From the NCBI RefSeq assembly GCF_026738875.1, contig NZ_JAPQFJ010000004.1, positions 62,001 to 126,000 of the forward strand: a DNA stretch of 64,000 nucleotides, written 5' to 3'. Shown here one piece after another: positions 12,224 to 29,241 of the stretch. Below the pieces are notes generated by a model. It searched no databases. It saw nothing but the letters and a program-made list of their open reading frames with translations, and was not told the origin of the DNA. The DNA comes from Clostridium brassicae (GTDB lineage Bacteria > Bacillota > Clostridia > Clostridiales > Clostridiaceae). Position numbers and translations under genes: made by a program. Position 1 is the first letter of the stretch; each line of letters starts with the position of its first letter.

Positions 12224-12634
12224 TTATACTGCCTTATAATTAATTTGGCCTAAGTCTTCATGTGCATTATGTCTTATTCTATCTACAAGACCTCTCGCAA
12301 CTTCTGATGCTTCATGTTTTTCAGCTTGAAGCTTTTCCTTGAGATAATCAAAAGCTACCCATGGATTTACTGAATCACCACAAGTAAATAAATCTACAGA
12401 TGCATAACCATATTCTGGCCATGTGTGAATTGTTAAATGAGATTCTTGTATTATAACAGCTCCACTAACTCCCCACGGATTAAACATATGAAAACAACTG
12501 GTTACTATTGTAGCTTTAGCTTCTACTGCTGCTTCATTCATGTATTTTTCAATTAAAGCATGATTATTCAATATATCTTTATCACAGTTGTAAAATTCAA
12601 CTAAAATATGTCTTCCTAATTGTTCTATTTTCAT
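12224..12634 (-). CDS. speD: S-adenosylmethionine decarboxylase proenzyme
   Basis: Supplies decarboxylated SAM for spermidine synthesis. The 136-residue proenzyme has the self-cleavage site in [12 protein letters not shown]: cleavage between Glu and Ser yields the pyruvoyl cofactor from Ser. The catalytic CGDS motif is also present ([12 protein letters not shown]). It belongs to the short bacterial (class 1b, SpeH-type) form. Three related palindromes lie 106-200 nt upstream and may control it. Confidence 0.95.
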
Positions 12635-12739
12635 TTAGAACCTCCCTTTTAATAGTTTATCCTATTATATTTTTTATATGCTATTGCCAGTCATTTCAAG
12701 TGTTTCCTAATATGTATAATATGCATTATTTTTAATTTT

Positions 12740-14656: not shown

Positions 14657-15283
14657 TCAATTAAAATTCTTAACTTTATATAAAAACTTATTAATATTTT
14701 CTTCTTCTTCTTTATATTTTTCTTCTGTCATTTCTCCCCTACCTAATCTATCACACAAAGACAGCAATGCAACTTCGTCTGGAGATACTTGCAAAATCAT
14801 ATTTTTAACATCAGCAAAAGGTAAGTCTTTTACAACAAAAAGAATTTGCATATGCCATCTTACTAAATAACACACCTTATCAATAAATTCTTTCTCCCCT
14901 GTAAGTTCTTCTAAAAACTTTCTTGCTATCTTTTCTCCTTGTATATCATGTTCATAAGCAGTTATTCTTCCTTTTCTAAGTTTTGTAGTAGGTTTTTTCC
15001 CTAAATCATGAAGAAATGCAGCCCACATAAAGGCATGTGGCTCTTCACTCAACGTCTTTCTTTCAGCAGCATTATCTACTACCATCATAGTGTGATTCCA
15101 AACACTCCCTTCTGGATGATGTTTAGGCGATTGCGGCACATCTTTCAATTCCTCTAACAAATTAAACGGATATATTTTAGGAAACTCTCCCTCTTTAATT
15201 AAATTATTAAAATAATCTGAAGGTTTTTCATCATTCATTAAATGTATATTAAACTCCTCAAAAATAAGCTTTTTGTCCCTCAT
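14657..15283 (-). CDS. HD-domain phosphohydrolase
   Basis: The 208-residue protein carries an HD metal-binding domain: EGSVWNHTMMVVDNA supplies the first His, FLHDLGKKPTT the HD pair, and YEHDIQGEKIARKF plus VRWHMQ further His residues. This arrangement resembles the HD domain of CCA-adding enzymes and cyanobacterial-type phosphohydrolases, but the nucleotidyltransferase part is absent. Substrate unknown. It stands alone, downstream of the DUF4829 gene with a terminator between them. Confidence 0.85.
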   Translation of the reverse strand: MRDKKLIFEEFNIHLMNDEKPSDYFNNLIKEGEFPKIYPFNLLEELKDVPQSPKHHPEGSVWNHTMMVVDNAAERKTLSEEPHAFMWAAFLHDLGKKPTTKLRKGRITAYEHDIQGEKIARKFLEELTGEKEFIDKVCYLVRWHMQILFVVKDLPFADVKNMILQVSPDEVALLSLCDRLGRGEMTEEKYKEEEENINKFLYKVKNFN

Positions 15284-15634
15284 ATATTTCTCCTTTAAAT
15301 AATATAATTTATCTATTCTTTGTTATTGTTCCATGACATAAAATAATTTATTATAATATACTCACCTTTTTAAAATTTCATTTTTATATACATCTAGTTA
15401 ACATAAAAAAATGTACATTTAATATTTTAATGAAATCATTACTATTCATAAATTAATTTTTGAGTCATTTTATTGTATATTTTTTATTTGATATAATTTT
15501 CTGAAATATTTTTTTAATTTTGTACTATATTTAAAATGATTTTATTTTTTATATTTTACAATTTTATTTAGTAATTCTAATCTAGATTTTAAATTATTGA
15601 GTTGATTATAGCGAAATTCATTTATCAACAATAT
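15284..15634. other. AT-rich intergenic region
   Basis: No frame with a ribosome site and no clear structured element seen; it probably carries the promoter of the HD-domain gene. Confidence 0.5.
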
Positions 15635-15687
15635 AAAAAAGCTATACCTCAAAGTGATGTTTTTAAAAAAACACTTTGAGGCATAGC
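15635..15687 (-). terminator. Terminator of the DUF4829 gene
   Basis: Sixteen-bp stem (15641-15656 with 15672-15687, one A-C mismatch) followed on the minus strand by six T. Located 116 nt after the gene. Confidence 0.8.
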
Positions 15688-15802
15688 CTTATGAAACAAT
15701 TTAAATTAGCATATATCCCTTTAAATTACACACCTTATTTTTTTAATAAAATTTTTAAGCAAAAAAGGTATACTAAAAAATTTGTTTTTAAATGTAATAT
15801 AT

Positions 15803-16285
15803 CTACAACTCACCAAAATCATCTATAAGCCAAGGAGAGTTTTCATCTTTCCTAATAACATTAAACCACCAAACATATTTTCCACTTTCTTGAGCACTTT
15901 TATTATTTTCTTTATATTTAACACGATAGGTGACTCTAAAAACTTTAAGATTTTTCTCAGTAGTTCCATTTACACTACCCTGTCCATCTTTTAAATAACT
16001 CCCTTTGATGTTATTATTCATCTCTTCTTGTATACCTATTAGCTTTATACTTTCTAAATCGTCATATCCCCAAACCACATTAGGGCTTTTGAACCTATCT
16101 GTTAGAGTTGATAAAACCTTTTCTTTGTTCTTTTCATTTTCGTATTTAAAGTAGTTTCTAACTACAGTTTCAGCAGCTTTTGTATCAGGATCATTCCCTA
16201 TTTTTAACCTTCCAGTTGCAGCACAAACAGAAAATATTATGCTTCCCAAAAGTGCAGCGCCTATTATGAAATTTTTAAATTTCAT
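15803..16285 (-). CDS. Secreted or membrane-anchored DUF4829 protein
   Basis: The 160-residue protein has an N-terminal signal or anchor (KFKNFIIGAALLGSIIFSVC). An NTF2-like domain follows: AETVVRNYFKYENEKNKEKVLSTLTDRF, then VVWGYDDLESIKLIGI, then the C-terminal WWFNVIRKDENSPWLIDDFG. This pattern matches the DUF4829 family of clostridia. A Cys near residue 21 is not in a good lipobox. Function unknown; the protein is predicted to act outside the membrane. Confidence 0.75.
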   Translation of the reverse strand: MKFKNFIIGAALLGSIIFSVCAATGRLKIGNDPDTKAAETVVRNYFKYENEKNKEKVLSTLTDRFKSPNVVWGYDDLESIKLIGIQEEMNNNIKGSYLKDGQGSVNGTTEKNLKVFRVTYRVKYKENNKSAQESGKYVWWFNVIRKDENSPWLIDDFGEL

Positions 16286-16450
16286 AGATTAAATCCTCCG
16301 TTTTTTAACTAATGTACTATTTGTTTATATATTATCTTATTAACTCATGTATTAAATATTAATTCCATTATAATACAAAATGATTAACATTAATAATTTA
16401 TTGAAAAATTTCCTAATATAAAAAACTTATTTGAAACTTTAGTAAATATA

Positions 16451-16485
16451 AAAACTGTTGATAGTGTATACTTATCAACAGTTTT
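16451..16485 (-). terminator. Terminator of the antiporter operon
   Basis: AAAACTGTTGATA/TATCAACAGTTTT, 13-bp stem with a 9-nt loop, about 120 nt after the last operon gene. The rest of this 322-nt gap is AT-rich with no gene seen. Confidence 0.75.
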
Positions 16486-16607
16486 AAATAAAATCATATA
16501 AAAATAAATATATAATCTAATATAATGTTTTATAAAATAATGCATTATATTCCTTTTAATTACTATATAATTTATAAGCAGAAATACGCTTTAGGAAAAA
16601 CTTAACT

Positions 16608-18680
16608 TTATACAATCATAATTAAGAGACATGCTACAAGAACTCCTGCAAAAACAAATATTGAGTAAGTTACACTATTCATTTTTTCTCCTAGCTTATA
16701 AGCTTCTTTTCTAAGGTTCGTTGTAGAAGTATTTATTTTATTACTTATATCATTAGATTTGAGTACATTCTTCTCATCTATATTAGTAAGTTTTTTTATA
16801 TTTTTTTGAGTTGTATTTATACAAGTCATACTAGACTCAACCATTGTTTCTACCCATTGTTTCAATTGTACCTTAATGCCCTTTCCTCTCTTGATTTCCC
16901 TTAAAGTTAAAGCTTTGCATAATTTATTAAACGTATTTATTGAATATATAAGGCCTTTATCAATAATCTTTAATATAATAGAACAAACAATAAATATAAC
17001 TTTTCCTACTGGTGCATAGATGTTTTTTTCTAAACTAATCCAGTTTAAAGCATAATTTTCATAATACCAATGTTCTTCTTGTTTTTTCATTAAATAAGTT
17101 CTTATAAATAGGAAGTAAATACCCACTCCTATTAATATTATAAGAAATGCTGAAGCTATATGGGACGCTGAATAGAAATGAGGCTCCTTATAAACTTGAC
17201 TTGGGAAAACATCTATAGATTTATTAATAAGTTTAAAAATTTTATTTGGCATAATACCTATAAATATAGACACTACTGATAAAATAACCATAGGTACATA
17301 TATAATACCTTTAGATTTTATTTTTACTTGTTCAATAGCAGGATTGTTTTTCTCCACAAATACAGCTACAAATATTTTTAATAAATAAGCTACTGTAAAA
17401 GCACTACTTATTGTAAATATAATTTCAGCTACTGTAAACCACCATCCTCCATACATATGATGTGCTTCTGAAAGAGCAACATGTAAAAGAGTTTTTCCTG
17501 TATATCCATTAAAACCAGGCATTCCTATAATAGAAAACATTCCTATTAAAAATAATACTTTAAGCCTGTTTTTATTTCTTCCAAATCCACCTATTTCATT
17601 TATACTTAATTCATGTAATACAATATATATAAGCCCAGCTATCATAAATAAAAGCGATTTGAAAATTGCATGATTGATAACATAGTATAAACTTCCATAA
17701 ATAGCTATAGCACCATGTTCTTTAAGCATTCCCACAAGTCCAATACCAACGAGAATATATCCCATCTGACTCATACTACTATAAGCAAGAATTCTTTTAA
17801 TGTTTCTTTGAAACATAGCTAAAAATCCACCTATAAACATATTCAAAAATCCTATAACTAATATAATAGCAGATATAACAATGTCTCCAGCCATTATTAT
17901 ATTAACCATAATAATAATGCCAAAAATACCTGTTTTAACTAATATTCCAGACAATATAGCACTTGCCGGTGCAGGTGCAGCTGGGTGAGCTTTAGGCATC
18001 CATATATGAAGAGGAAACATTCCTGCTTTTACTCCAAAACCTATTATAATCAAAGCTGATATCACATACTTTACATTTCCTATATTAGAAACAGCAACAT
18101 TAAGCTGACTTATATCCAATGTTTTAGTGTAATCAAACAATAGGAACAATCCCATCAGAAGAATTAATCCTCCGCTAATTGCCATTACTATATAAATATT
18201 CCCTGCTTCATGAGAATACTCACTCTCATCGTGAATAATTAACGGATAAGAAGTTAATGACATTATTTCGAAAAAAGTAAATAAATTTAAAATATTTTCT
18301 GATACAAACAAGCCTATTGTACTTGCAAATGTTAGTATAAAGAAAAAATAGTACCTATTTCTATTCTTATAATTTATAAAATATTGTGTTGAATAAATTG
18401 TAACTAAAAACCATACAAAAGAAGTTATCCAAGCAAATATATATCTAAACATATTTAATTTTAAATGTAACCCTGTTCCCATTATATATGGTACAGATAG
18501 TTCTATTGATCCTGATTGTACAAATTTATATAAAAATGTTACCACTCCAAAAACTATACCTGTCATTATAATATTAAAAACATCCCTATACTTTTCATTT
18601 ATTCGTCCTAATCCGAGACCTATAAAAGCTCCTATCATAGGAAAAAGTATAATAAATAATAATAAATTTTCACTCTTCAT
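16608..18680 (-). CDS. NuoL/MrpA-like antiporter subunit
   Basis: Large (690-residue) proton-translocating subunit of the NuoL/M/N-MrpA/D family. About fourteen core helices include the conserved GFGVKAGMFPLHIWMPKAHP region (key Lys and His) and KRILAYSSMSQMGYI. After the core come an extra helix (about 505-525), a helix near 560-580, an amphipathic charged stretch (about 590-665) and a final helix (SVTYSIFVFAGVLVACLLI). This resembles NuoL/MrpA subunits with a lateral helix. The DUF4040 and MbhE parts that are fused to MrpA in bacilli are separate genes here. It is the last gene of the operon. Confidence 0.85.
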   Translation of the reverse strand: MKSENLLLFIILFPMIGAFIGLGLGRINEKYRDVFNIIMTGIVFGVVTFLYKFVQSGSIELSVPYIMGTGLHLKLNMFRYIFAWITSFVWFLVTIYSTQYFINYKNRNRYYFFFILTFASTIGLFVSENILNLFTFFEIMSLTSYPLIIHDESEYSHEAGNIYIVMAISGGLILLMGLFLLFDYTKTLDISQLNVAVSNIGNVKYVISALIIIGFGVKAGMFPLHIWMPKAHPAAPAPASAILSGILVKTGIFGIIIMVNIIMAGDIVISAIILVIGFLNMFIGGFLAMFQRNIKRILAYSSMSQMGYILVGIGLVGMLKEHGAIAIYGSLYYVINHAIFKSLLFMIAGLIYIVLHELSINEIGGFGRNKNRLKVLFLIGMFSIIGMPGFNGYTGKTLLHVALSEAHHMYGGWWFTVAEIIFTISSAFTVAYLLKIFVAVFVEKNNPAIEQVKIKSKGIIYVPMVILSVVSIFIGIMPNKIFKLINKSIDVFPSQVYKEPHFYSASHIASAFLIILIGVGIYFLFIRTYLMKKQEEHWYYENYALNWISLEKNIYAPVGKVIFIVCSIILKIIDKGLIYSINTFNKLCKALTLREIKRGKGIKVQLKQWVETMVESSMTCINTTQKNIKKLTNIDEKNVLKSNDISNKINTSTTNLRKEAYKLGEKMNSVTYSIFVFAGVLVACLLIMIV

Positions 18681-18696
18681 ATTTTATCCCTCCTTT

Positions 18697-20148
18697 TTAA
18701 ATCAACTCAGCTGCTATCTTTTGTATAAAAGTTACAACTGGATTTGGGAATAACCCTAATAACACGACTATCACTGTTATTGATACTATAGGCACCAACA
18801 TCTTCATAGGTGCTTCCTTTACCTCTATCACATCGTTATTTTCTTTTTTAAAAAAAGCTACAGTAACAATAGGTAAAAGATACAATGCTGTAAGAACTGC
18901 ACTGAAAAGTAGTATAGCTGCAAAATATATCTTTCCTTCTACGAGTCCACCTAAAGCCAAATACCACTTGCTCACAAACCCATTACTTGGAGGAATTCCT
19001 ATAAGAGAAATTGCTGCTATTGCAAAACATCCCATAGTAATAGGCATTTGTTTTCCTATACCCTTTATCTCACTAATTTCAGTCTTATGAGTCATATACA
19101 TTATTGTGCCAACACAAAAGAATAAAGTTATTTTTATAACAGCATGATTTATTAAATGAAGTAATCCACCCACCAAAGCATCTTCGTTTAAAAGTACAAT
19201 TCCCAATAATATATACCCTAGCTGACTGACAGTAGAATAAGCTAACCTTTTCTTTAGGTTCTGTTGATGAAGAGCTAGAAACGATCCCATTATAATAGTT
19301 ACTCCAATTAATACACTCATGTATATATGCCCTTTTGTTACTCTTATTACATCAGCCCCAACTATAAAATAACTCATTCTTATTAGCGCATAAGCTCCCG
19401 ACTTAACTACAGCAACCGCATGTAAAAGAGCACTTACAGGTGTGGGAGCTACCATAGCCTCTGGTAACCATGAGTGAAATGGAACTAAAGCAGCTTTGAC
19501 CCCAAACCCTAAAAATAAACTTACGTAAATTCCAAGAAATAACTTTGTATTTCCACCTGAAACTCCTGCTAATACTCCACCTGGAACAAAATTCAAGTTT
19601 TTTGTTATGCTAAAGCATAGAATCATTCCTAATAAAACTAATGTTGCTCCACCAAAAGAGTATATAAGATATTTTTTACCACTAGATAATGCTTGCTTTG
19701 TACCAGAATGAATTACTAATGGAAAAGTAGCTAAAGTCAGTAATTCATAGAAAATATATAATGTAATTAAGTTTCCTGAAAAAGCAATCCCCATTGTAAC
19801 TCCTAAAGTAGCTGTGAAAAATATAAAAAATCTATTTTCCTTTCCTTCATGCTTCATATATTCCATTGAATAAAAAGTAGTAAATATCCATAACACTGAT
19901 ACTAATATAGAAAAAAGAATTGATAATTTGTCTATTTTAAGATATATATCAAGAAAATCATTAAATTTAAACAAATGAAAACTACACTCACCTACATAGT
20001 AAAAAATAGAAAATAAAACAATACAATTAAAAATTACTCCAGCGCTTGCAAATATATTTCTTCCTCTTTCATCAAATTTAAAAATAGATATTAATATCGA
20101 TAAAACAAAAGGGAAAAAAACTGGGAGTAAAATCACAGCACTATTCAA
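18697..20148 (-). CDS. MrpD/NuoM-like antiporter subunit (second copy)
   Basis: The 483-residue protein is a multi-helix member of the proton-conducting Q/M family. Conserved elements are GFGVKAALVPFHSWLPEAM with its Lys and His, a Glu in the fifth helix (IFYELLTLATFPLV), and KRLAYSTVSQLGYI. The start is TTG 20148, 7 nt after AGGAGG. It lies 14 nt after the first MrpD homologue and is a distinct sequence, not a recent duplication, as the two differ throughout. Confidence 0.85.
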   Translation of the reverse strand: MNSAVILLPVFFPFVLSILISIFKFDERGRNIFASAGVIFNCIVLFSIFYYVGECSFHLFKFNDFLDIYLKIDKLSILFSILVSVLWIFTTFYSMEYMKHEGKENRFFIFFTATLGVTMGIAFSGNLITLYIFYELLTLATFPLVIHSGTKQALSSGKKYLIYSFGGATLVLLGMILCFSITKNLNFVPGGVLAGVSGGNTKLFLGIYVSLFLGFGVKAALVPFHSWLPEAMVAPTPVSALLHAVAVVKSGAYALIRMSYFIVGADVIRVTKGHIYMSVLIGVTIIMGSFLALHQQNLKKRLAYSTVSQLGYILLGIVLLNEDALVGGLLHLINHAVIKITLFFCVGTIMYMTHKTEISEIKGIGKQMPITMGCFAIAAISLIGIPPSNGFVSKWYLALGGLVEGKIYFAAILLFSAVLTALYLLPIVTVAFFKKENNDVIEVKEAPMKMLVPIVSITVIVVLLGLFPNPVVTFIQKIAAELI

Positions 20149-20162
20149 ATTAAATCCTCCTT

Positions 20163-21632
20163 TTATCCTATTCCAAGCTTAATAATATCTATTATATTTC
20201 TTGAAGCTATTCCTACTCCAATCATAGCTATAATTAACATCATTACTGGCAATAGTTCTTTTAGTGGCTTTCTTTTAGATTTATATACTTTACCCTTTAA
20301 ATTTTCTTCTCCAAAAAATCCGTTTATACTAATAGGAAAATAATATACTGCATTTAACAAACTACTTATTAATATAAAAATTATTAGCATTGGTTTACCT
20401 GCTCTTATACTTGACAAAGATAAATACCATTTGCTAACAAACCCAGGAAGTACAGGTATTCCTATCATGGATAAAGAACCTATAAAGAATAGTCCTAAGG
20501 TTAGAGGCATCTCTTTTCCAACACCTCTTAATTTGTCAATTTCTTTGTGTCCTGTTTTTTCAATTATTGCCCCTGCACATAAAAACAATGCTGATTTGGT
20601 TACTGCATGACCAATCATATGGAAAACAGCTAATGTAACTCCAAATTCAGTTCCTAATCCTATTCCAAAGAATATATATCCCATTTGAGCCACAGTTGAA
20701 TATGCTACTAATCTCTTTATATTCCTTTGGAATATAGCAAATACAGAACCGATAACCATTCCTGCAATACCTAAAATAAGTAATATATCCAAAACCATAT
20801 TTCCTGCTATAATCTCTAATCCAAACCCTCTATACAAAATTTTTATTAACAATATTGCAAAAGCTTTTAGTACAAGGGCTGAAAGAAGAGCACTTGATGA
20901 CGTAGGTGCACTTGAATGAGCATCTGGCAACCAATTATGAAGAGGAAACATGGCACTTTTAACACCCAATCCTATTGTAAATAATCCGATAGTTACAACA
21001 ATCGCCTTAGGGTAATTTGTATAATTATTTATCAAAACTTCGTGAATATAAGTTATATTTAATTGTCCTGTCATAGAATATAAAAATGCAATTCCCATAA
21101 GCACAAGACCGGAACCTAAACAGCTCATTATAAGGTATTTTAAAGTTGCCTTTATATTTTCCTTTTTATCTTTTATAACCACTATCCCACAAGAAGCTAA
21201 AGTTCCTATTTCGATAAAAACAAAGGCATTAAATATATCATTTGTGAATACAATTCCTAGTAAAGAACCTATAAGTATATTTACAAGCAAATAATATAAA
21301 GGAATTCTATTTTCATTTATATCTTTGTCTATACTATAAATGGAATACCAAATAACCATACTAGCCACAAAAGTAAACATTACCGCCATTATAGATTCTA
21401 TATTTCCTATATAAAATTCAATTCCAAAAGGTGCATCAAAGTGTCCTATGGAATAGCAATATTTTCCCCCAATTAATACTCCTCTAAGATTGGCTATAGA
21501 AAAAATTAATGATATAAACATTGATATAAGACTTATACCCTTTACAATATTTTTTTTATTTACTATAGGCATTATAAACGCTGTTATAAATAATATGAGC
21601 ACTATCATCAGCGGAAAACTTTTAATAATCAA
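20163..21632 (-). CDS. mrpD: MrpD/MbhH antiporter subunit
   Basis: The 489-residue ion-translocating subunit contains GLGVKSAMFPLHNWLPDAHS and KRLVAYSTVAQMGYIFFG, the signatures of MrpD/NuoM/NuoN, plus the Glu in AFVFIEIGTLASCGIV. It follows mrpC by 3 nt, as MrpD does in canonical operons, so it is taken as the true MrpD. The start is TTG 21632 with GGGAGATGG upstream. Expected to contribute one Na+ or H+ channel of the complex. Confidence 0.88.
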   Translation of the reverse strand: MIIKSFPLMIVLILFITAFIMPIVNKKNIVKGISLISMFISLIFSIANLRGVLIGGKYCYSIGHFDAPFGIEFYIGNIESIMAVMFTFVASMVIWYSIYSIDKDINENRIPLYYLLVNILIGSLLGIVFTNDIFNAFVFIEIGTLASCGIVVIKDKKENIKATLKYLIMSCLGSGLVLMGIAFLYSMTGQLNITYIHEVLINNYTNYPKAIVVTIGLFTIGLGVKSAMFPLHNWLPDAHSSAPTSSSALLSALVLKAFAILLIKILYRGFGLEIIAGNMVLDILLILGIAGMVIGSVFAIFQRNIKRLVAYSTVAQMGYIFFGIGLGTEFGVTLAVFHMIGHAVTKSALFLCAGAIIEKTGHKEIDKLRGVGKEMPLTLGLFFIGSLSMIGIPVLPGFVSKWYLSLSSIRAGKPMLIIFILISSLLNAVYYFPISINGFFGEENLKGKVYKSKRKPLKELLPVMMLIIAMIGVGIASRNIIDIIKLGIG

Positions 21633-21635
21633 AAT

Positions 21636-21998
21636 TTAACCATCTCCCTTTTTTAATATCTCATCTAATTCTATAGTTCCATAATTCTCATATATTTTAA
21701 TAGTTAATGCTAAAGCAAAGGCTGTGGTACTAACCCCTACAACTATACCGGTTAACATAAGTCCTGTTGGAATTGGATTTATATACGCATTAACTCCTTT
21801 ATAACTATTCACAATTATTGGTGCTTCCTTACCCTCTATGTATCCTTTTGCTATAAAGAATAAAAAAATTGCTGTATCCATAATATTCATACCTATTATT
21901 TTTTTAATTAAATTGTTATGGAGTAAAAGAATTGTAAAACCTACTCCAAACAAAATGATTGCTGCTGTCTCATAATAATTGTTTAATAAACCCTCCAT
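21636..21998 (-). CDS. mrpC: Mrp antiporter subunit C (NuoK-like)
   Basis: The 120-residue, three-helix protein is homologous to NuoK: FGVGFTILLLHNNLIKKIIGMNIMD, then NPIPTGLMLTGIVVGVSTTAFALALTIKIYE near the C-terminus. Directly abuts mrpB (stop and start adjacent). Acts with MrpD in the membrane complex. Confidence 0.9.
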   Translation of the reverse strand: MEGLLNNYYETAAIILFGVGFTILLLHNNLIKKIIGMNIMDTAIFLFFIAKGYIEGKEAPIIVNSYKGVNAYINPIPTGLMLTGIVVGVSTTAFALALTIKIYENYGTIELDEILKKGDG

Positions 21999-22418
21999 CT
22001 AAATTTCCCCTTCATCAAATAATGAATAAAAAAAGTACATTGATATAGCTACAATAATACCTACAAGTATATTTAAAGGTAATAAAAAACCTCCACTAAA
22101 AATATATCCTGGATCACCTAATGGTGGCTGTGGCAAATTAATGTGGCTACCTCCTGTTATAAAACTATATCCTTTTAATATTCCATATAAAAATACAGAA
22201 AAACATATTATATTCATTAAAGTTTTATATGCTAGCTTTTGTTTAGCTTGTTTTCCTCCATAAACTAATCTGTATAAAATAAGACTAGCGCCTATAATTG
22301 TTCCCCCAGCAAATCCTCCTCCTGGACTTAAATGCCCATGAAAAATAACGTATATACCAAAAATCTGTATAAAAGGGATTATTATTTTACTTATCTCTTT
22401 TAAAATTACATCTTTCAT
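21999..22418 (-). CDS. mrpB: Mrp antiporter subunit B (MnhB domain)
   Basis: The 139-residue protein carries the MnhB domain: IFGIYVIFHGHLSPGGGFAGG with the conserved H(G)HLSPGGGF motif, then four hydrophobic segments. GGAGGGG lies 5 nt before the ATG. It corresponds to MbhF in the archaeal membrane-bound hydrogenase module. Confidence 0.9.
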   Translation of the reverse strand: MKDVILKEISKIIIPFIQIFGIYVIFHGHLSPGGGFAGGTIIGASLILYRLVYGGKQAKQKLAYKTLMNIICFSVFLYGILKGYSFITGGSHINLPQPPLGDPGYIFSGGFLLPLNILVGIIVAISMYFFYSLFDEGEI

Positions 22419-22447
22419 AAGCCCCTCCTAACTAAAATTTTTTACAA

Positions 22448-22750
22448 TTATTCAATATAACTATTATCTTGATTTTCTTTCTTATCTTTTTTTAATAAAA
22501 TAATCACTATAACTGCTGCTATAAATAAAACACTGGCTTCTACAAAAGTATCGAAGGCACGATAATCTAATATAATTCCTGTTACTATATTAGTAGCTCC
22601 GGTATCTTTTACTGCATTTTCTATATAATATTTTGAAACTTCATTATTGGCTGGGTTGCTTTCGCTTCCAAACTTAGGCAACTCATTAACTCCCAATAAC
22701 AAAATACCAATTAAGCTTATAGAAAGTATACAAGCAAATATTTTCTTCAT
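22448..22750 (-). CDS. MbhE-like membrane subunit
   Basis: The 100-residue protein has an N-terminal helix (KKIFACILSISLIGILLLGV), an exposed segment, and a second helix (TFVEASVLFIAAVIVIILL) preceded by GIILDYRAFDTFVE. The DYRAFDT(L)xE pattern is characteristic of the C-terminal part of MrpA and of stand-alone MbhE. It overlaps the DUF4040 gene by 4 nt. Here it supplies the portion of MrpA that is split off. Confidence 0.82.
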   Translation of the reverse strand: MKKIFACILSISLIGILLLGVNELPKFGSESNPANNEVSKYYIENAVKDTGATNIVTGIILDYRAFDTFVEASVLFIAAVIVIILLKKDKKENQDNSYIE

Positions 22751-22986
22751 TTTTTCACTTCCTTAATTCTTTTTAATGTAAGCATAAATAAAAGGGTTGT
22801 AATCCCTGCTCCCACTGCTGCTTCTGTAATTGCCACATCTGGTGCATTAAGTTGTTCCCACAATATAGCCATTATCAAACTATAAATCATAAAAACAATA
22901 ATTGCAGATAACATGTTTTTCATGGCAGAAACAGCTACAGAAGACCCAATTAAAAAAATTAGCATTATAATACTAAACGTTTTCAA
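22747..22986 (-). CDS. DUF4040 (MbhD/MrpB-like) membrane subunit
   Basis: A small three-helix protein with the sequence LIMAILWEQLNAPDVAITEAAVGAG, typical of the DUF4040 part of MrpA and of MbhD; the acidic residues are thought to lie near an ion path. I take TTG 22986 as start (79 residues), 9 nt after AAGGTG; a GTG at 22998 would add four residues. It overlaps the end of mrpG. Confidence 0.85.
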   Translation of the reverse strand: MKTFSIIMLIFLIGSSVAVSAMKNMLSAIIVFMIYSLIMAILWEQLNAPDVAITEAAVGAGITTLLFMLTLKRIKEVKK

Positions 22987-23293
22987 TTTTATCCACACCT
23001 TCCTTATTTTTCACTTTCATCTCATTTCCATATTTTGCTTTTACTATCAAATGAGTTGCTGTAGGATTGGTAACCCATATAAAAACTATAATTAATAAAA
23101 GTTTTAAACTAACTATGTTAAAACCGTTATAAATCATTAGCGATATTAAACATAACACAGCTCCCAAAGTATCACACTTTGCAGCACCATGAGCTCTTGT
23201 ATACATATCAGGAAATCTTAAGACCCCTATAGTACCAACCATAAAGAAAAACAGTCCACTCATAAGTAATGCTCCCATAATAACTATCCTCAT
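22973..23293 (-). CDS. mrpG: Mrp antiporter subunit G
   Basis: The 106-residue protein has three helices and the family signature VLRFPDMYTRAHGAAKCDTLG. GGAGGGG stands 6 nt before the ATG, and the 3' end overlaps the DUF4040 gene. Corresponds to MbhC. Confidence 0.9.
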   Translation of the reverse strand: MRIVIMGALLMSGLFFFMVGTIGVLRFPDMYTRAHGAAKCDTLGAVLCLISLMIYNGFNIVSLKLLLIIVFIWVTNPTATHLIVKAKYGNEMKVKNKEGVDKIENV

Positions 23294-23305
23294 AAAAATC
23301 CCCTC

Positions 23306-23557
23306 CTATATCCTTACATTCTTTGCAATAACAACGGATGCAATAAAACTTGTTAAAGCATAAACTAAAGATACATCAATAAAGTATTTCTCTCTTATTA
23401 TGAAAGAAACTATTAAAATCAAGATTATTGTTTTAGTTCCTACAACATTTATTGCAACTAACCTATCTGCTGCACTAGGCCCTTTAACTATTCTAATCAT
23501 ACATAAAAAAATGGTCGCCGTTAAAAATAAAATTGCAAATACAAGTAGTTTATCCAT
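23306..23557 (-). CDS. mrpF: Mrp antiporter subunit F
   Basis: The 83-residue, three-helix protein contains MIRIVKGPSAADRLVAINVVG, the MrpF/MbhB hallmark. ATG 23557 is chosen since GAGGAG lies 8 nt upstream; a GTG at 23566 overlaps that site. It overlaps or abuts mrpE. Confidence 0.9.
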   Translation of the reverse strand: MDKLLVFAILFLTATIFLCMIRIVKGPSAADRLVAINVVGTKTIILILIVSFIIREKYFIDVSLVYALTSFIASVVIAKNVRI

Positions 23558-23562
23558 ATCTA

Positions 23563-24033
23563 TCACTCCTCTATTTTTAAAAGAATTTTTTCAAATTTAG
23601 AATTCACTATGCCTTCTATGTATTCTCTTTTAAGACAATGAATTTTTAACATATCATTTTCCATATCTACAGTTATAGTTCCAGGAGTTAAAGTAATAGA
23701 ATTTGCTAACACCGTTCTACAAAAATTAGATTTTAATTTTGTCTTAACCTCTAATATACTAGGCGAAATATCCATATTGGGACTTAATACAATCATTGCT
23801 ACATTTATATTAGCTATAATTACTTCTTTTACCAAAATAACTATATATTCAACCCAAAATCTTATATTTTTAAATAACAATTTCTCTTTTCTTGTAGCTT
23901 TATCGAAAAGCTTTTCATTTAAAATACTTACTAATATACTCACTACAATCCCTAAAATGAACACTTCTATATTAAATTTACCACATAGTATAATCCAAAA
24001 TATTAAGCATAATATTATAACTTCAAATGTCAT
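23563..24033 (-). CDS. mrpE: Mrp antiporter subunit E
   Basis: First gene of the antiporter operon (MbhA equivalent). The 156-residue protein has two N-terminal helices, the conserved KEVIIANINVAMIVLSP segment, and LANSITLTPGTITVDMENDMLKIHCL, the hallmark of MrpE. ATG 24033 follows AAAGGAGG by 8 nt. A sigma-54 promoter lies about 40-50 nt upstream of this start. Confidence 0.92.
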   Translation of the reverse strand: MTFEVIILCLIFWIILCGKFNIEVFILGIVVSILVSILNEKLFDKATRKEKLLFKNIRFWVEYIVILVKEVIIANINVAMIVLSPNMDISPSILEVKTKLKSNFCRTVLANSITLTPGTITVDMENDMLKIHCLKREYIEGIVNSKFEKILLKIEE

Positions 24034-24070
24034 TTTCAATACCTCCTTTTCTAGTTATGTTAATCTTATT

Positions 24071-24086
24071 AGCAAGATTCATACCA
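24071..24086 (-). promoter_or_regulatory. Sigma-54 promoter of the antiporter operon
   Basis: Minus strand reads TGGTATGAATCTTGCT: the -24 GG and -12 GC are separated by exactly 10 nt, and 11 of the conserved bases of TGGCACG-N4-TTGCW are kept. Transcription would start near 24060, giving a short leader before mrpE. Confidence 0.72.
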
Positions 24087-24172
24087 ACTTTTTTATAATT
24101 ATAATTACTATTTTCCATCCTCTTAAACCCTTGATTTACCCTGGTTTATTATAAAATTTATCTATAAACAAG

Positions 24173-24203
24173 AAAAAGGTTGAATAAAATATTCAACCTT
24201 TTT
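24173..24203 (-). terminator. Terminator of the sigma-54 activator gene
   Basis: GGTTGAATA/TATTCAACC with A5 and T5 flanks and a 3-nt loop. It insulates the activator transcript from the antiporter promoter. Confidence 0.85.
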
Positions 24204-24209
24204 AATAAT

Positions 24210-24288
24210 TGTTTCATTATGATACACTTGCGACATATTATTTCATTTTTTTTGTATCATAATGGCACATGAGTTTCATTATGATACA
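24210..24288. promoter_or_regulatory. Three upstream activator-like sites, TGTWTCA-N3-TGAWACA
   Basis: Copy 1 (24210-24226) TGTTTCA-TTA-TGATACA matches both arms. Copy 2 (24253-24269) TGTATCA-TAA-TGGCACA has two mismatches in the right arm. Copy 3 (24272-24288) AGTTTCA-TTA-TGATACA has one mismatch. They lie about 125-215 nt upstream of the sigma-54 promoter, the usual range for enhancer sites. Confidence 0.65.
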
Positions 24289-24301
24289 CTTTCTTTTTTC
24301 T

Positions 24302-26287
24302 TTACATTATATCTATATTATATTTTTTCATCTTTCTATACATAGTACTTCTTCCTATTCCCAAAACTTTAGCTGCTGATGCTACATTTCCGCCTAACTC
24401 TTTTATAGTTTGAATAATTGCATTTTTTTCTATTTCTTCTAAAGAAACTAATTCTTTTTTATGTATTAATTCTCCTAGTATTTCTTTTCCCGTTATATGT
24501 GATGGTATATTTTCATAATTTAATATTGAATTTTGTTCTGCCATGTTTACTACTGTTTGCATTACATTTTGAAGTTCTCTAACATTACCTGGCCAACTAT
24601 AGCTAACCATACCTTTGTAAAAACTTTCGCTAATGCCTTTTATATATTTTTCTGTATCCTTACAAAATTTTTCTAAAAAGTATTGAACAAATATTTTAAT
24701 ATCTTCTTCTCTATTCCTTAAAGGTGGAGTATTAATTGTCATAACATTTATTCTATAAAACAAATCACTTCTAAAGTTCCCAAGCTCAACTTCTTTATTC
24801 AGGTCTTTATTAGTAGCGGCAATTACCCTTACATCAATTGGAATAACATCATGCCCTCCTACTCTTACAACAGTCCTATCTTCTAATACCCTAAGCAAAC
24901 TTACCTGAGCGTCTAAAGGCATATCCCCTATTTCATCTAAAAATATAGTTCCTCCATCGGCCAATTCAAATTTTCCAGGATGTCCTCCTCTTTTAGCCCC
25001 TGTAAAAGCTCCTTCTACGTATCCAAATAATTCACTTGAAACTAATTCCCTAGGTATTGCCCCACAATTTAAAAACACAAAAGGAAAATCTTTCCTATCA
25101 CTTTCATTGTGTATCGCTTGGGCAAACATCTCCTTTCCAGTTCCACTTTCTCCTTGAAGTAATATTGTTGTATTAGTTTTAGCAGAAATTGAGGATAACT
25201 TTATTGCCGATTTTATAGACTTACTCTCTCCAAGTATATCTTCAAACGTAAATTTAGCATTAGCTCCAACTATTTTATTAACTAAATTATGAATCTTTTT
25301 TTCTTCTCTAAAAGTTATAACTATACCTTCTCGTCCTCTATTATTTGGTGCTTTAATAGGAGTAATGTTTGCAATACATGTCTTTTTTTTCCCTGTTCGA
25401 GTTTTAAAGTGTATTTCTTCTTCCTCAAGCTTTCTAAAACTTTTTATATTCTTAATTATATCTTGTCGATTTCCTACACTAAGAATATTCTTAAAATGCT
25501 CTCCTATAATATCTTTTTCTTTAAATAGTAATAATTTTCTGGCAAATCTGTTTATGCTTACTATATTTCCACTACTATCAACCCTAATTATACCTTCTGA
25601 TATAGACTCAGTAATTTGATAAAATTTTTCACTTATATTTTCAAGTTCTTTATTTCTTTCTTCTAATTTAATCTCTTTTTCTATTGCCTCTGCAGCAGCT
25701 ACTACCATGCCCAATGTATGAGGATGAACAAGCCTATAATTTCCTGTCATACTCAAAACTCCTAATATGTCTCCATTTTTATCTCTTATAGGACAAGCTG
25801 ATGATGTTAAATTATGATATTTTTTTAAATAATGTTCTCCTCCTACGACCTGAATAGGCTCTCCAGTTATAAGTACTATACCTATAGCATTTGTTCCTAT
25901 AATTTCTTCTTTTACACTATACCCTTCACATAACCCACAAAAACTATAAATATTAATCAAACTTTCATTTCCTATATGATCCAAAACATATCCTTCTCTA
26001 TCAGTTAACCTAATTAAAAACTCAGTATCCTTTACTATTTTATATAAACTTTCCATAAAAGGTTTTGTAGTATTTAAAAGCGATGCAAATTGCTTACATC
26101 TTTTAAATAACTCATTTTTTTCAAGCTTCACAGAAAATTCATCTGAAAATGGATTTATTTTATGTTTCTTGCTGCGCTTCCATGATTCTGCTATAATATG
26201 TCTTATCTTTTTTGTATCTAATATATTTTTATTAATAAACTTTTCCCACCTTTTTACTATATCTTCATTATTATCCTGTAGCTGCAT
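24302..26287 (-). CDS. Sigma-54-dependent activator (GAF-PAS-AAA+-Fis, AcoR-like)
   Basis: Enhancer-binding protein that opens sigma-54 promoters. Domains: N-terminal helical region (IRHIIAESWKRSKKHKINPF), GAF (about residues 75-205, with GTNAIG and GGEHYLKKYH), PAS (about 215-320), AAA+ (about 345-570) with Walker A GESGTGKE, the sigma-54-contacting GAFTGA in GYVEGAFTGAKRGG, and Walker B GGTIFLDEIGD. A Fis-type helix-turn-helix ends the protein (ASAAKVLGIGRSTMYRKMKK). The domain order is that of AcoR/DhaR regulators. Nothing shows which ligand binds the sensor domains. Location directly upstream of a sigma-54 promoter and three palindromes indicates that the antiporter operon is a target. 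Confidence 0.92.
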   Translation of the reverse strand: MQLQDNNEDIVKRWEKFINKNILDTKKIRHIIAESWKRSKKHKINPFSDEFSVKLEKNELFKRCKQFASLLNTTKPFMESLYKIVKDTEFLIRLTDREGYVLDHIGNESLINIYSFCGLCEGYSVKEEIIGTNAIGIVLITGEPIQVVGGEHYLKKYHNLTSSACPIRDKNGDILGVLSMTGNYRLVHPHTLGMVVAAAEAIEKEIKLEERNKELENISEKFYQITESISEGIIRVDSSGNIVSINRFARKLLLFKEKDIIGEHFKNILSVGNRQDIIKNIKSFRKLEEEEIHFKTRTGKKKTCIANITPIKAPNNRGREGIVITFREEKKIHNLVNKIVGANAKFTFEDILGESKSIKSAIKLSSISAKTNTTILLQGESGTGKEMFAQAIHNESDRKDFPFVFLNCGAIPRELVSSELFGYVEGAFTGAKRGGHPGKFELADGGTIFLDEIGDMPLDAQVSLLRVLEDRTVVRVGGHDVIPIDVRVIAATNKDLNKEVELGNFRSDLFYRINVMTINTPPLRNREEDIKIFVQYFLEKFCKDTEKYIKGISESFYKGMVSYSWPGNVRELQNVMQTVVNMAEQNSILNYENIPSHITGKEILGELIHKKELVSLEEIEKNAIIQTIKELGGNVASAAKVLGIGRSTMYRKMKKYNIDIM

Positions 26288-26345
26288 TTTATCAAAATAA
26301 CCTCCTCTATTTGAGCCTAGTATTTACATTGTCCACCTTTTATAC

Positions 26346-26534
26346 TTATTTACCTTTATCATCTTCTTTTGTATTGTCCTTCTTTGATTTATACCAATCC
26401 TTTGGATCTTTTATCTCAAAAGGAAATATATTAGCATTAAATTCATCCCCTGAATCATCCATAGGCTTTTCAAAAATAACAGCAAATATAATGAATAACA
26501 CTACTCCTATTATTATATATAATAAAATTTTCAA
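26346..26534 (-). CDS. Small single-helix membrane protein
   Basis: A 62-residue protein with one N-terminal helix (KILLYIIIGVVLFIIFAVIF) and a hydrophilic, charged tail (DPKDWYKSKKDNTKEDDKGK). I place the start at TTG 26534, 5 nt after GGAGGAAGGTG; a GTG at 26552 sits inside that ribosome site. No family recognised. It lies 58 nt upstream of the sigma-54 activator, on the same strand. Confidence 0.6.
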   Translation of the reverse strand: MKILLYIIIGVVLFIIFAVIFEKPMDDSGDEFNANIFPFEIKDPKDWYKSKKDNTKEDDKGK

Positions 26535-26813
26535 GGGTTCACCTTCCTCCACTTATATACAATCTTATATATAATTATACTATTTTTATCATATAATTGT
26601 TAGTTATAAATACCATTCTTCTCTTCCATAGAATCTAATATCAATATGAAATTGAAAAATTATTATTAATAACATAATATATTTTTTACATACAAAAACA
26701 CCAGTAAATAATGAACTGCCCATAATTTAGTAGCTAGAATAACTAGTTCCCTATATAACCCTACTAACTTTAGTTCTATTCAAAATTCACTGGCTTTTTT
26801 AACACTTAAATTA
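26535..26813. other. AT-rich intergenic region
   Basis: Between the small membrane protein and the clpE terminator I find no frame with a ribosome site and no convincing structure. Confidence 0.4.
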
Positions 26814-26843
26814 AATATTTTCTCATAAAACAAAGAAAATATT
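26814..26843 (-). terminator. Terminator of clpE
   Basis: AATATTTTCT/AGAAAATATT, 10-bp stem with a 10-nt loop, 47 nt after the clpE stop. Confidence 0.6.
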
Positions 26844-26889
26844 GCTTTATTATTAATTTAAAATTTTTAGTCTATAAAAACAAAAACTT

Positions 26890-29241
26890 TTAACTTTCAA
26901 CCACTACTTTTCCATCTCTTAATTCTACCTTTATATGAGATCCCTCTTTAAGCTTGTTTTCAAGATATATTTCTGCAATTTCATCTTCAATATACCTTTG
27001 AATTGTTCTTCTTAAAGGTCTTGCACCATATTTTTCGTCATATCCTTTTTCTAATATAAAATCTTTTACTTCCTGAGAAACCTCTATAGTCATATTTTTT
27101 TCTAATACTTCATCTATAACTTCTTTAAGCATCAAATCTACTATACTGCGAAGTTCTTCTGTATTAAGTTGATTAAATACTATCACCTCGTCTACTCTGT
27201 TTAAAAACTCTGGTCTGAAAGTTTCCTTTAATGCTTCCTTAGCACTGTTTTCTAATGCAGCATATCCAGCATTATTAAATCCTATTCCATTGGACTTAAA
27301 GTTAGTTCCTGCATTAGAAGTCATGATAATTACTGTGTTTTCAAAGAAAACTGTTCTTCCTTGACTATCTGTAAGTCTTCCGTCTTCAAGAATTTGAAGA
27401 AGCATATTAAATACATCAGGATGAGCTTTTTCAATCTCATCTAAAAGTATTACTGAATAAGGTCTTCTTCTAATTTTCTCAGTTAATTGCCCCCCTTGAT
27501 CATATCCTATATATCCTGGAGGAGCTCCTATGAGCTTAGACACTGTATGTTTTTCCATATATTCTGACATATCTATTCTAATCATAGCATCTTCATTGCC
27601 AAAAAGCTCTACAGCTAATGCCTTTACTAATTCTGTTTTTCCAACACCCGTAGGTCCAACAAATATAAACGAAGCTGGCTTTTTCTTTTTTCTAAATCCT
27701 GAACGATTTCTTCTAATAGTTTTTGATAAACTCACTATAGCTTCATTCTGTCCAATGACTCTTTTATGAAGACTTTTTTCTAAACTTAATAGCTTCTTAG
27801 CTTCTTCTTCTGTAATTTTCTGTACTGGTATTTTAGTCCAAGCTTCTATAACATAAGCTATATCTTCAACTGTAATCTCTGATTTACCATTTTTTTCTTC
27901 AATTTCTTTTATTTCTTCCACAAGCTTACATTCTCTCATTTTATATTCTGCAGCTTTTTCATAATCATCATTTTCAGCAGCTCTTCTTTTATCATCTTGA
28001 AGATTTGATAACTCTTGTTTTAGACTTTCTAATTTAGTAAGATTCTTGTTCTTTAAATTTGCCCTTGAACCTGCTTCATCAATCACATCAATTGCTTTAT
28101 CTGGTAAAAATCTATCAGTAATATATCTTTGAGATAAATTTGCTGCTGCCTCTATTACTTTGTCAGATATTATTACTTTATGATAATCTTCATAATAACC
28201 TTTTATTCCTTTTAAAATTTCTATCGTATCCTCTACAGTAGGCTCATCAACTAATACCGGTTGAAATCTTCTCTCTAAAGCAGAATCCTTCTCAATATGT
28301 TTTCTATACTCTTCAAGAGTAGTTGCACCTATTAGCTGTATTTCTCCTTTTGCAAGAGCCGGTTTTAAAATATTAGCAGCGTTCATTGCTCCGCCTTGAA
28401 CTTCTCCCGCTCCCATAATATTATGAACTTCATCAATTATAAGAATGACATTTTCACTCTCTTTAGCTTCTTTTATAATTGATTTCATTCTACCTTCAAA
28501 TTGTCCTCTAAATTGTGTTCCTGCCACAATCGCTGTTAGATCAAGGAGGTATATTTCAGCATTTAGAAGCTTATGTGGCACTTCCTTATCTGCAATTTTC
28601 ACGGCTAATCCCTCTGCAATAGCTGTCTTACCTACCCCTGGCTCTCCAATCAATATCGGATTGTTTTTCGTTCTTCTGTTAAGTATTTGAATAACTCTAT
28701 CAATTTCCTTATCTCTTCCTATAATCCTATCAACTTCTTTGTTCTTTGCTTTATCCGTTAAATTTATTCCATATTTATCTAAATATTTCTTTTTATTTCT
28801 AAAATGCTTATTCTTTGATTTAGTTTTAGATTGCTCTCTTGTCCCTGAAAATTTTTCTTCATTATTATCATTAAATTCTTTATTCTCTAATGTAAACTCA
28901 TCCTCACTTGTAGCTTCTTCTTGAATTTCTTCTTCTCCTTGTTCTACAATCCCATCATCGTTTTTCATGAATGGAAATAATCCTTCAGATAAGTTAGAAA
29001 ACAACTCATTATTGCTTAATTCTTCAATATCTATATCTTGAAGCATTCCCTTCATTTGATCCGTAAGATTTTCAACTTCTTCTTTTGACATACCAGTTTG
29101 TTGCATCAACTGATCTATAACCGGAATTCCCATCTTTCTAGCGCAGTCTATACATAAACCTTGCATTTTAGGTTTTCCATCTATAATTTTTGAAATGAAT
29201 ATAGTTGCTATATTTTTATTACAAATAGAACACAATTTCAT
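26890..29241 (-). CDS. clpE: ClpE-type AAA+ unfoldase
   Basis: Class I Clp/Hsp100 ATPase that feeds substrates to ClpP. The N-terminus is a zinc finger (CSIC near residues 4-7, CIDC near 29-32), the mark of ClpE rather than ClpC. Then come AAA-1 with [13 protein letters not shown], a UVR coiled-coil ([13 protein letters not shown]), AAA-2 with [14 protein letters not shown], and a C-terminal D2-small domain with [13 protein letters not shown] 29241 is used because GGAGATG lies 5-8 nt before it; five upstream codons (to 29256) would include the ribosome site. Length is 783. No CtsR-type operator (repeated GGTCAAA) is visible upstream. Confidence 0.9.

What the first reader, a model, noticed from the sequence alone, without database searches (positions are those of the whole stretch)
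24071..26287. Sigma-54 switch for an Mrp/Mbh-type antiporter operon
The antiporter operon is preceded by a good sigma-54 promoter (GG-N10-GC at 24071-24086, minus strand), three TGTWTCA-N3-TGAWACA sites at 24210-24288, and the gene for a GAF-PAS-AAA+-Fis activator with an intact GAFTGA. A terminator separates the activator gene from the promoter. AcoR-type activators usually control acetoin or glycerol metabolism; control of a ten-gene cation/proton antiporter would be unusual and implies a metabolite- or redox-gated response of ion homeostasis.
Basis: partly seen in the sequence, partly recalled or inferred. Interest (0 to 1): 0.75.

Follow-up and report, generated by a model that had tools for sequence, protein, structure and literature searches.

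The report
Sigma-54 switch for clostridial Mrp antiporter
A ten-gene ion pump of a Clostridium is very probably switched on by a dedicated activator protein through a special type of promoter, and the same activator, binding sites and promoter stand before the same pump genes in distantly related clostridia, which suggests that selection keeps the arrangement.

Summary
At 24071-24087 (minus) lies the window's only exact sigma-54 site; three inverted repeats lie 124-203 nt upstream (0, 2 and 1 mismatches); next comes a GAF-PAS-AAA+-Fis activator gene with GAFTGA; a terminator lies between repeats and promoter. In 28 of 28 distinct loci with the orthologous activator (window included) it is followed by the sigma-54 site (19 exact, 9 with one mismatch) and Mrp genes (27 beginning with mrpE, one reduced to two subunits). 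The triple-repeat geometry beat 1000 of 1000 shuffles in 22 of 22 loci tested. Of 51 mrpE places in one family, 16 of 16 with the activator have the promoter, 0 of 35 without. Seven orthologous operons without the activator form one clade and share a sigma-70-like element instead. This genome has no PF00346 (hydrogenase/complex I) protein, so the complex looks like a stand-alone antiporter. Verdict: a new orthologous group ("MrpR") of a known kind of switch, with a target I did not find described. The signal is unknown; paralogues stand before alcohol and aldehyde enzymes. No expression or binding data exist.

The parts
24302..26287 (-). mrpR (name proposed here): GAF-PAS-AAA+-Fis sigma-54 activator, 661 aa, GAFTGA intact
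   Evidence: orthologues next to mrp genes in 28 of 28 loci
24272..24288 (.). inverted repeat 1 (farthest from promoter), 1 mismatch
24253..24269 (.). inverted repeat 2, 2 mismatches; 19 nt from repeat 1
24210..24226 (.). inverted repeat 3, exact; 43 nt from repeat 2; 124 nt from the GG of the promoter
24173..24203 (-). intrinsic terminator of mrpR, between repeats and promoter
   Evidence: hairpin-like sequences at the like place in many relatives by eye only
24071..24087 (-). sigma-54 promoter, -24 GG (24085-24084) and -12 GC (24073-24072); start predicted near 24060 by the usual spacing (recalled)
   Evidence: present in 28 of 28 loci with at most one mismatch
24042..24046 (-). ribosome binding site GGAGG of mrpE
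23563..24033 (-). mrpE (PF01899)
   Evidence: start corrected from 24039
23306..23566 (-). mrpF (PF04066)
22973..23293 (-). mrpG (PF03334)
22747..22998 (-). MbhD-like subunit (PF13244)
22448..22750 (-). MbhE-like subunit (PF20501)
21999..22418 (-). mrpB (PF04039)
21636..21998 (-). mrpC (PF00420)
20163..21632 (-). mrpD-like antiporter subunit 1 (PF00361)
18697..20148 (-). mrpD-like antiporter subunit 2 (PF00361)
16608..18680 (-). long antiporter subunit (PF00361), like MrpA/HyfB

Best explanation
This is a local sigma-54 switch for what looks like a stand-alone Mrp-type cation/proton antiporter. RNA polymerase with sigma-54 sits closed at the -24/-12 site before mrpE. The activator encoded just upstream (MrpR) binds three inverted repeats 124-203 nt away, assembles as an AAA+ ring, loops to the promoter and opens it by ATP hydrolysis through GAFTGA when its GAF-PAS part reports a signal inside the cell. 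The terminator between repeats and promoter keeps read-through from mrpR out of the operon, so that transcription depends on activation. Shown here: the elements, their conservation, and their joint absence in one clade. Inferred: binding, looping and activation (analogy with AdhR of C. beijerinckii), insulation by the terminator, and antiport (family). Guess, about one in three: the signal is a small fermentation product or intermediate such as an alcohol, aldehyde or diol/ketone, or the state of an enzyme that makes it.
For: Activator, repeats, promoter and mrp genes together in 28 of 28 loci: sigma-54 site exact in 19, one mismatch in 9. Triple-repeat geometry above all 1000 shuffles in 22 of 22 loci tested. 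Of 51 examined mrpE places of one family, promoter present in 16 of 16 with the activator and in 0 of 35 without, within 500 bp. Seven orthologous operons without the activator form one clade and share a sigma-70-like element (by eye), though their genomes keep rpoN. In 21 neighbourhoods only the activator and antiporter genes are widely shared. The 22 activators in the tree are one side of a branch, SH-aLRT 100. Exact sigma-54 consensus 22 times in this genome against 1 for the control. In a paralogous system three such sites are each needed (PMC7017808, passages).
Against: No transcription start, binding or mutant data. Two of the three repeats in the window are imperfect, and single repeats at <=2 mismatches are at chance level genome-wide. 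A sigma-70-like match (TTAAGA-17-TATAAT, 24126-24098) lies just upstream of the site and could give basal expression; the region has 19 such matches against 17.5 expected. In the six most distant loci the repeats drift (scores 33, 32, 26, 21, 29, 26 of 36, no shuffles run). The nested place of the activator-less clade rests on supports of 83-89, below the 95 mark. The signal has no evidence beyond kinship.
Confidence: 0.87

Rival explanations
1. The switch is as described, but MrpR reads ion or pH state (Na+, K+, internal pH, membrane energy) directly or through a partner protein, as one expects of an antiporter regulator; the alcohol-enzyme kinship is only ancestry. (A rival on the signal, not on the switch.)
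For: The target is an antiporter-type complex, the only one with PF00361 in the genome. The best solved relative, E. coli DhaR, was crystallised with partner proteins DhaK and DhaL (PDB titles), so the sensor part need not bind a small molecule.
Against: GAF and PAS domains are not known to me as ion sensors (recalled); no partner gene is widely shared beside mrpR.
Confidence: 0.35
2. The operon is mainly driven by a housekeeping promoter and sigma-54 adds only a conditional boost.
For: Sigma-70-like match at 24126-24098; seven orthologous operons of one clade carry a sigma-70-like element.
Against: The match is within chance and by eye is not kept in the more distant relatives; activator and sigma-54 site occur together in four further families of the class.
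Confidence: 0.15
3. Another activator of the same genome with a similar repeat drives the operon, and MrpR governs something else.
For: Butanediol-dehydrogenase loci carry a similar repeat; another activator of this genome (C12) has a repeat with two mismatches after its own gene.
Against: MrpR stands beside mrp genes in 28 of 28 loci with changing neighbourhoods; the C12 activator has its own repeats and a near-consensus promoter before another gene (by eye).
Confidence: 0.04
4. The elements are chance in an AT-rich genome.
For: An exact sigma-54 match appears in 13 of 100 shuffles of the window; single repeats are at chance level genome-wide.
Against: Presence in 28 of 28 loci and joint absence.
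Confidence: 0.01

Closest known systems
AdhR / sigma-54 control of adhA1 and adhA2, Clostridium beijerinckii (PMC7017808, passages seen)
   Same: GAF-PAS-AAA+-HTH activator; three binding sites upstream of a sigma-54 promoter
   Different: Target is alcohol dehydrogenase; repeats at the Fe-ADH loci fetched here read like TGTCCTA/TAGGACA; MrpR is a separate clade
BldR (butanediol dehydrogenase) group of PMC6615313; matched to my loci by target gene only
   Same: Most similar repeat among the paralogues (TGTGTCAATATGATACA); same side of the midpoint-rooted tree as MrpR
   Different: Target and spacing differ; 40-42% identical to MrpR
DhaR of E. coli
   Same: Best solved relative of the GAF-PAS part by sequence and fold (4lrx)
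   Different: Below the curated DhaR cut-off
Mrp cation/proton antiporters; membrane-bound hydrogenase MBH
   Same: Subunit families E, F, G, B, C, D, and MbhD/MbhE-like pieces
   Different: No PF00346 catalytic-type subunit in this genome; three large PF00361 subunits

Membership tests
Sigma-54-dependent operon with its own enhancer-binding protein | -24/-12 promoter | tested here: met
   28 of 28 loci with at most one mismatch
Sigma-54-dependent operon with its own enhancer-binding protein | AAA+ activator with GAFTGA and Fis-type HTH | tested here: met
   one orthologue, G036, reads GAFTGS
Sigma-54-dependent operon with its own enhancer-binding protein | Upstream binding repeats about 100-250 bp from the promoter | tested here: met
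   range from PMC6615313
Sigma-54-dependent operon with its own enhancer-binding protein | Expression lost without sigma-54 or the activator | not testable with these tools
   needs mutants
DhaR equivalog (NF008485) | Curated score cut-off 551 bits | tested here: not met
   424 bits
AcoR | Orthology to B. subtilis AcoR | not tested
   no AcoR sequence was compared
AdhR / SadR / BldR / AorR groups | Falls among activators with those targets | tested here: not met
   22 MrpR rows are one side of one branch, SH-aLRT 100, apart from the 17 rows with those targets (targets judged by eye)
Mrp antiporter | Set of Mrp subunit families | tested here: met
Membrane-bound hydrogenase (MBH) | [NiFe] large-subunit/49-kDa homologue | tested here: not met
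   PF00346 absent from G000; present on other contigs in 3 of 10 MrpR genomes searched
Mrp antiporter | Na+(K+)/H+ exchange | not testable with these tools
   needs a transport assay

The most novel reading that the evidence does not exclude
MrpR is a fermentation-product sensor recruited from the alcohol/aldehyde branch of clostridial activators, so that clostridia of several families gate an Mrp antiporter by a solvent or carbonyl metabolite and tie membrane ion balance to the fermentation state; one lineage dropped the gate and runs the same pump from a housekeeping-type promoter.
Probability: 0.3. Interest if true: 0.7.

Novelty: new member of a known kind. Interest (0 to 1): 0.5.

Why it matters
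None of the 39 activator groups in Table 1 of the clostridial sigma-54 survey (PMC6615313) has an Mrp antiporter as target; the nearest is nhaC at the end of an ornithine operon, which that paper counts as amino-acid transport. This adds a group with an ion-homeostasis target, with repeats, promoter and natural absence cases that make it directly testable, and a natural contrast (sigma-54 site against sigma-70-like element on orthologous operons) to ask what the switch is for.

Tried and rejected
MBH hydrogenase complex: rejected for this genome, no PF00346; other redox modules were not sought. Against a general statement: 3 of 10 MrpR genomes in that call (G002, G004, G036) do have PF00346, on other contigs than their mrp operon. 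DhaR membership: rejected; AcoR was not compared. A wider regulon: one search lists 21 places of the repeat at <=2 mismatches (control 19); 15 were fetched and read, 6 not. Three of the 15 are this region; C1:109146 (one mismatch) lies inside a PhoH-like reading frame (by eye); one other (C2) has an exact sigma-54 site about 750 nt away, where the repeat looks like coding sequence of another activator; none of the rest has an exact site in its 3-kb stretch. Rfam: no family at gathering threshold in 15000-27000. Element like TAAAATCAAGGGTT, 41-52 nt before the sigma-54 site: at most 3 mismatches in 12 of 22 loci, 4-6 in 10 of 22; the pattern was read from these sequences and the shuffles keep only base counts; unexplained. 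Role from neighbours: nothing widely shared but the antiporter genes. Structure of the GAF-PAS part (pLDDT 81, pTM 0.62): best match DhaR, no ligand read from it. Six Paenibacillaceae loci (L065-L070) had no mrp match by tblastn; not followed.

Literature: searches (listings and abstract starts; longest list 25 of 377) showed no paper on sigma-54 control of Mrp. 'Mrp' and 'antiporter' have no occurrence in the main texts of PMC6615313, PMC12316311, PMC3162934, PMC4641369 (term counts). Of PMC6615313 I saw abstract, outline and section 4 parts 1-2 of 3; of PMC7017808 passages. Supplementary tables, subscription papers and preprints were not available.

Full report
What was claimed. A sigma-54 promoter, three inverted repeats and an activator gene precede a ten-gene Mrp operon; control of an antiporter by such an activator would be unusual.

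What is there. The exact sigma-54 consensus occurs once in the window, at 24087-24071 minus (expected 0.15; 13 of 100 shuffles have one or more). In the whole genome it occurs 22 times against 1 for the reversed pattern, and there is one rpoN, so sigma-54 promoters are real in this organism. The repeats lie at 24210, 24253 and 24272 with 0, 2 and 1 mismatches (1 of 100 shuffles of the window has three or more). Single repeats with up to two mismatches are at chance level in the genome (21 against 19). The activator has GAF, PAS, AAA+ and Fis domains and GAFTGA. A hairpin terminator at 24173-24203 lies between repeats and promoter. mrpE most likely starts at ATG 24033.

The operon. Ten genes: E, F, G, MbhD-like, MbhE-like, B, C and three large antiporter subunits. 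These three are the genome's only PF00361 matches, and the genome has no PF00346 match, so this looks like a stand-alone antiporter with an Mbh-like subunit order. In three of ten MrpR genomes searched PF00346 does occur, on other contigs. Transport itself is inferred from family.

Conservation. One search covered 58 genomes; 11, the own one included, hold an orthologue of 63-100% identity, and in 11 of 11 it is followed by an exact sigma-54 site and mrpE. A scan of species genomes with the sensor part gave 24 loci: 17 (L047-L063) have activator, sigma-54 site (at most one mismatch) and mrpE (four of them, L053, L058, L062, L063, are cut by a contig end inside the operon); one (Peptoclostridium litorale, L064) has activator, repeats, exact site and only two antiporter subunits, then a gene that looks like luxS; six Paenibacillaceae loci with 28-30% identity in the sensor part have no mrp match. 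An even draw of 391 genomes over the class gave 9 with a match at E<=1e-190, six of them new, in four other families; all six have a site with at most one mismatch and mrpE, F and G next. That search scored only the three best candidates of each genome. Identity of the 27 others to the window's activator is 48-92%.

Geometry. In the 22 loci the best triple of repeats with spacings near 19 and 43 nt scores 27-35 of 36; 1000 dinucleotide shuffles of each stretch never reached it; spacings are 19 and 42-45; repeat 3 to promoter GG is 108-132 nt. The core pattern came from the finding in this window, so the window's own score is not independent; those of the others are. In the six most distant loci scores are 33, 32, 26, 21, 29 and 26 (no shuffles).

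Absence control. PF01899 was sought in 194 genomes of the family; 46 have it, at 52 places. I examined 51; the one below cut-off (G125) was left out, and some stretches end at contig ends. Of the 51, 16 have the activator directly upstream and 16 of 16 have the site; 35 have no activator, and 0 of 35 have a site with at most one mismatch within 500 bp before mrpE (one, L102, has one about 530 bp away). A limit: in the 28 of other operon types mrpE need not be the first gene. The stricter set is the seven orthologous ten-gene operons. In the MrpD tree (35 rows: 18 with activator, 7 without, 10 of the other types; quick search) the seven are one clade (SH-aLRT 100) placed among those with the activator, on supports of 83-89, so a single loss is the best reading and not proof. 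Their genomes hold rpoN and no activator at E<=1e-100; their best sigma-54 matches have 3-4 mismatches, their triple scores are 20-21, like shuffles, and all seven show by eye a TAGACG...GATAAT element of sigma-70 type before mrpE.

Linkage. Around 21 loci (L058 left out), reading frames of 110 aa or more were clustered: the activator is in 21, antiporter subunits in up to 19, any other neighbour in six at most.

Kinship. In a 47-row tree (quick search) the 22 mrp-linked activators are one side of a branch with SH-aLRT 100. Of the 19 paralogue loci fetched (L028-L046; further weaker matches were not fetched), 17 stand before a gene that by its N-terminal sequence, by eye, is an iron-type alcohol dehydrogenase (6), secondary alcohol dehydrogenase (3), butanediol dehydrogenase (3) or aldehyde oxidoreductase (5); two stand before something else. 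Their repeats differ with the target: GTTCC/GGAAC at aldehyde oxidoreductase, TGTCCTA/TAGGACA at Fe-ADH, TGTGTCA/TGATACA at butanediol dehydrogenase (by eye). These correspond by target to AorR, AdhR, SadR and BldR of PMC6615313. In C. beijerinckii three AdhR sites are each needed and the triple mutant keeps under 2% activity (PMC7017808, passages). The predicted sensor part matches DhaR best.

Reading. The conserved arrangement is beyond reasonable doubt; that it works as a switch is inferred from a well-studied class. What it senses is open. Kinship suggests a carbonyl or alcohol metabolite, but DhaR shows that such a sensor may read a partner protein, and an ion or pH signal is not excluded.

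Novelty. Parts and mechanism are known; the orthologous group and its antiporter target I did not find in the papers searched (in-text). Hence a new member of a known kind, of moderate interest.

Noticed in passing
L064:10542-14074: Peptoclostridium litorale keeps activator, repeats and an exact sigma-54 site, but the operon is reduced to two large antiporter subunits, followed by a luxS-like gene.
   Followed up: partly
window 24126-24139 (minus) and relatives: Partly conserved element like TAAAATCAAGGGTT, 41-52 nt before the sigma-54 site in 12 of 22 loci; purpose unknown.
   Followed up: partly
L120-L124, L129, L132, upstream of mrpE: Seven activator-less orthologous operons share a sigma-70-like element TAGACG...GATAAT: an apparent promoter swap (by eye).
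   Followed up: partly
L059 near 12260-12697 (C. bovifaecis): mrpE seems interrupted: one in-frame TGA, and only residues 65-157 align.
   Followed up: no
L012:65-2171 (G000 C12): Another sigma-54 activator with its own repeats and a near-consensus sigma-54 element before a membrane-protein gene that looks like a transporter subunit (by eye).
   Followed up: no
L051:19654-21032 (C. aestuarii): Further antiporter-subunit matches follow the operon, up to the end of the stretch.
   Followed up: no
L059 and L049, between terminator and promoter: Sequences like CcpA cre sites (recalled consensus, by eye), hinting at extra carbon control in two species.
   Followed up: no
G015 C17, G064 C3, G077 C28 (L146-L148): Short activators (open frames 336-345 aa, no sensor part), 49-52% identical to MrpR's AAA+-HTH part, in genomes without MrpR and on other contigs than their mrp operons.
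   Followed up: no
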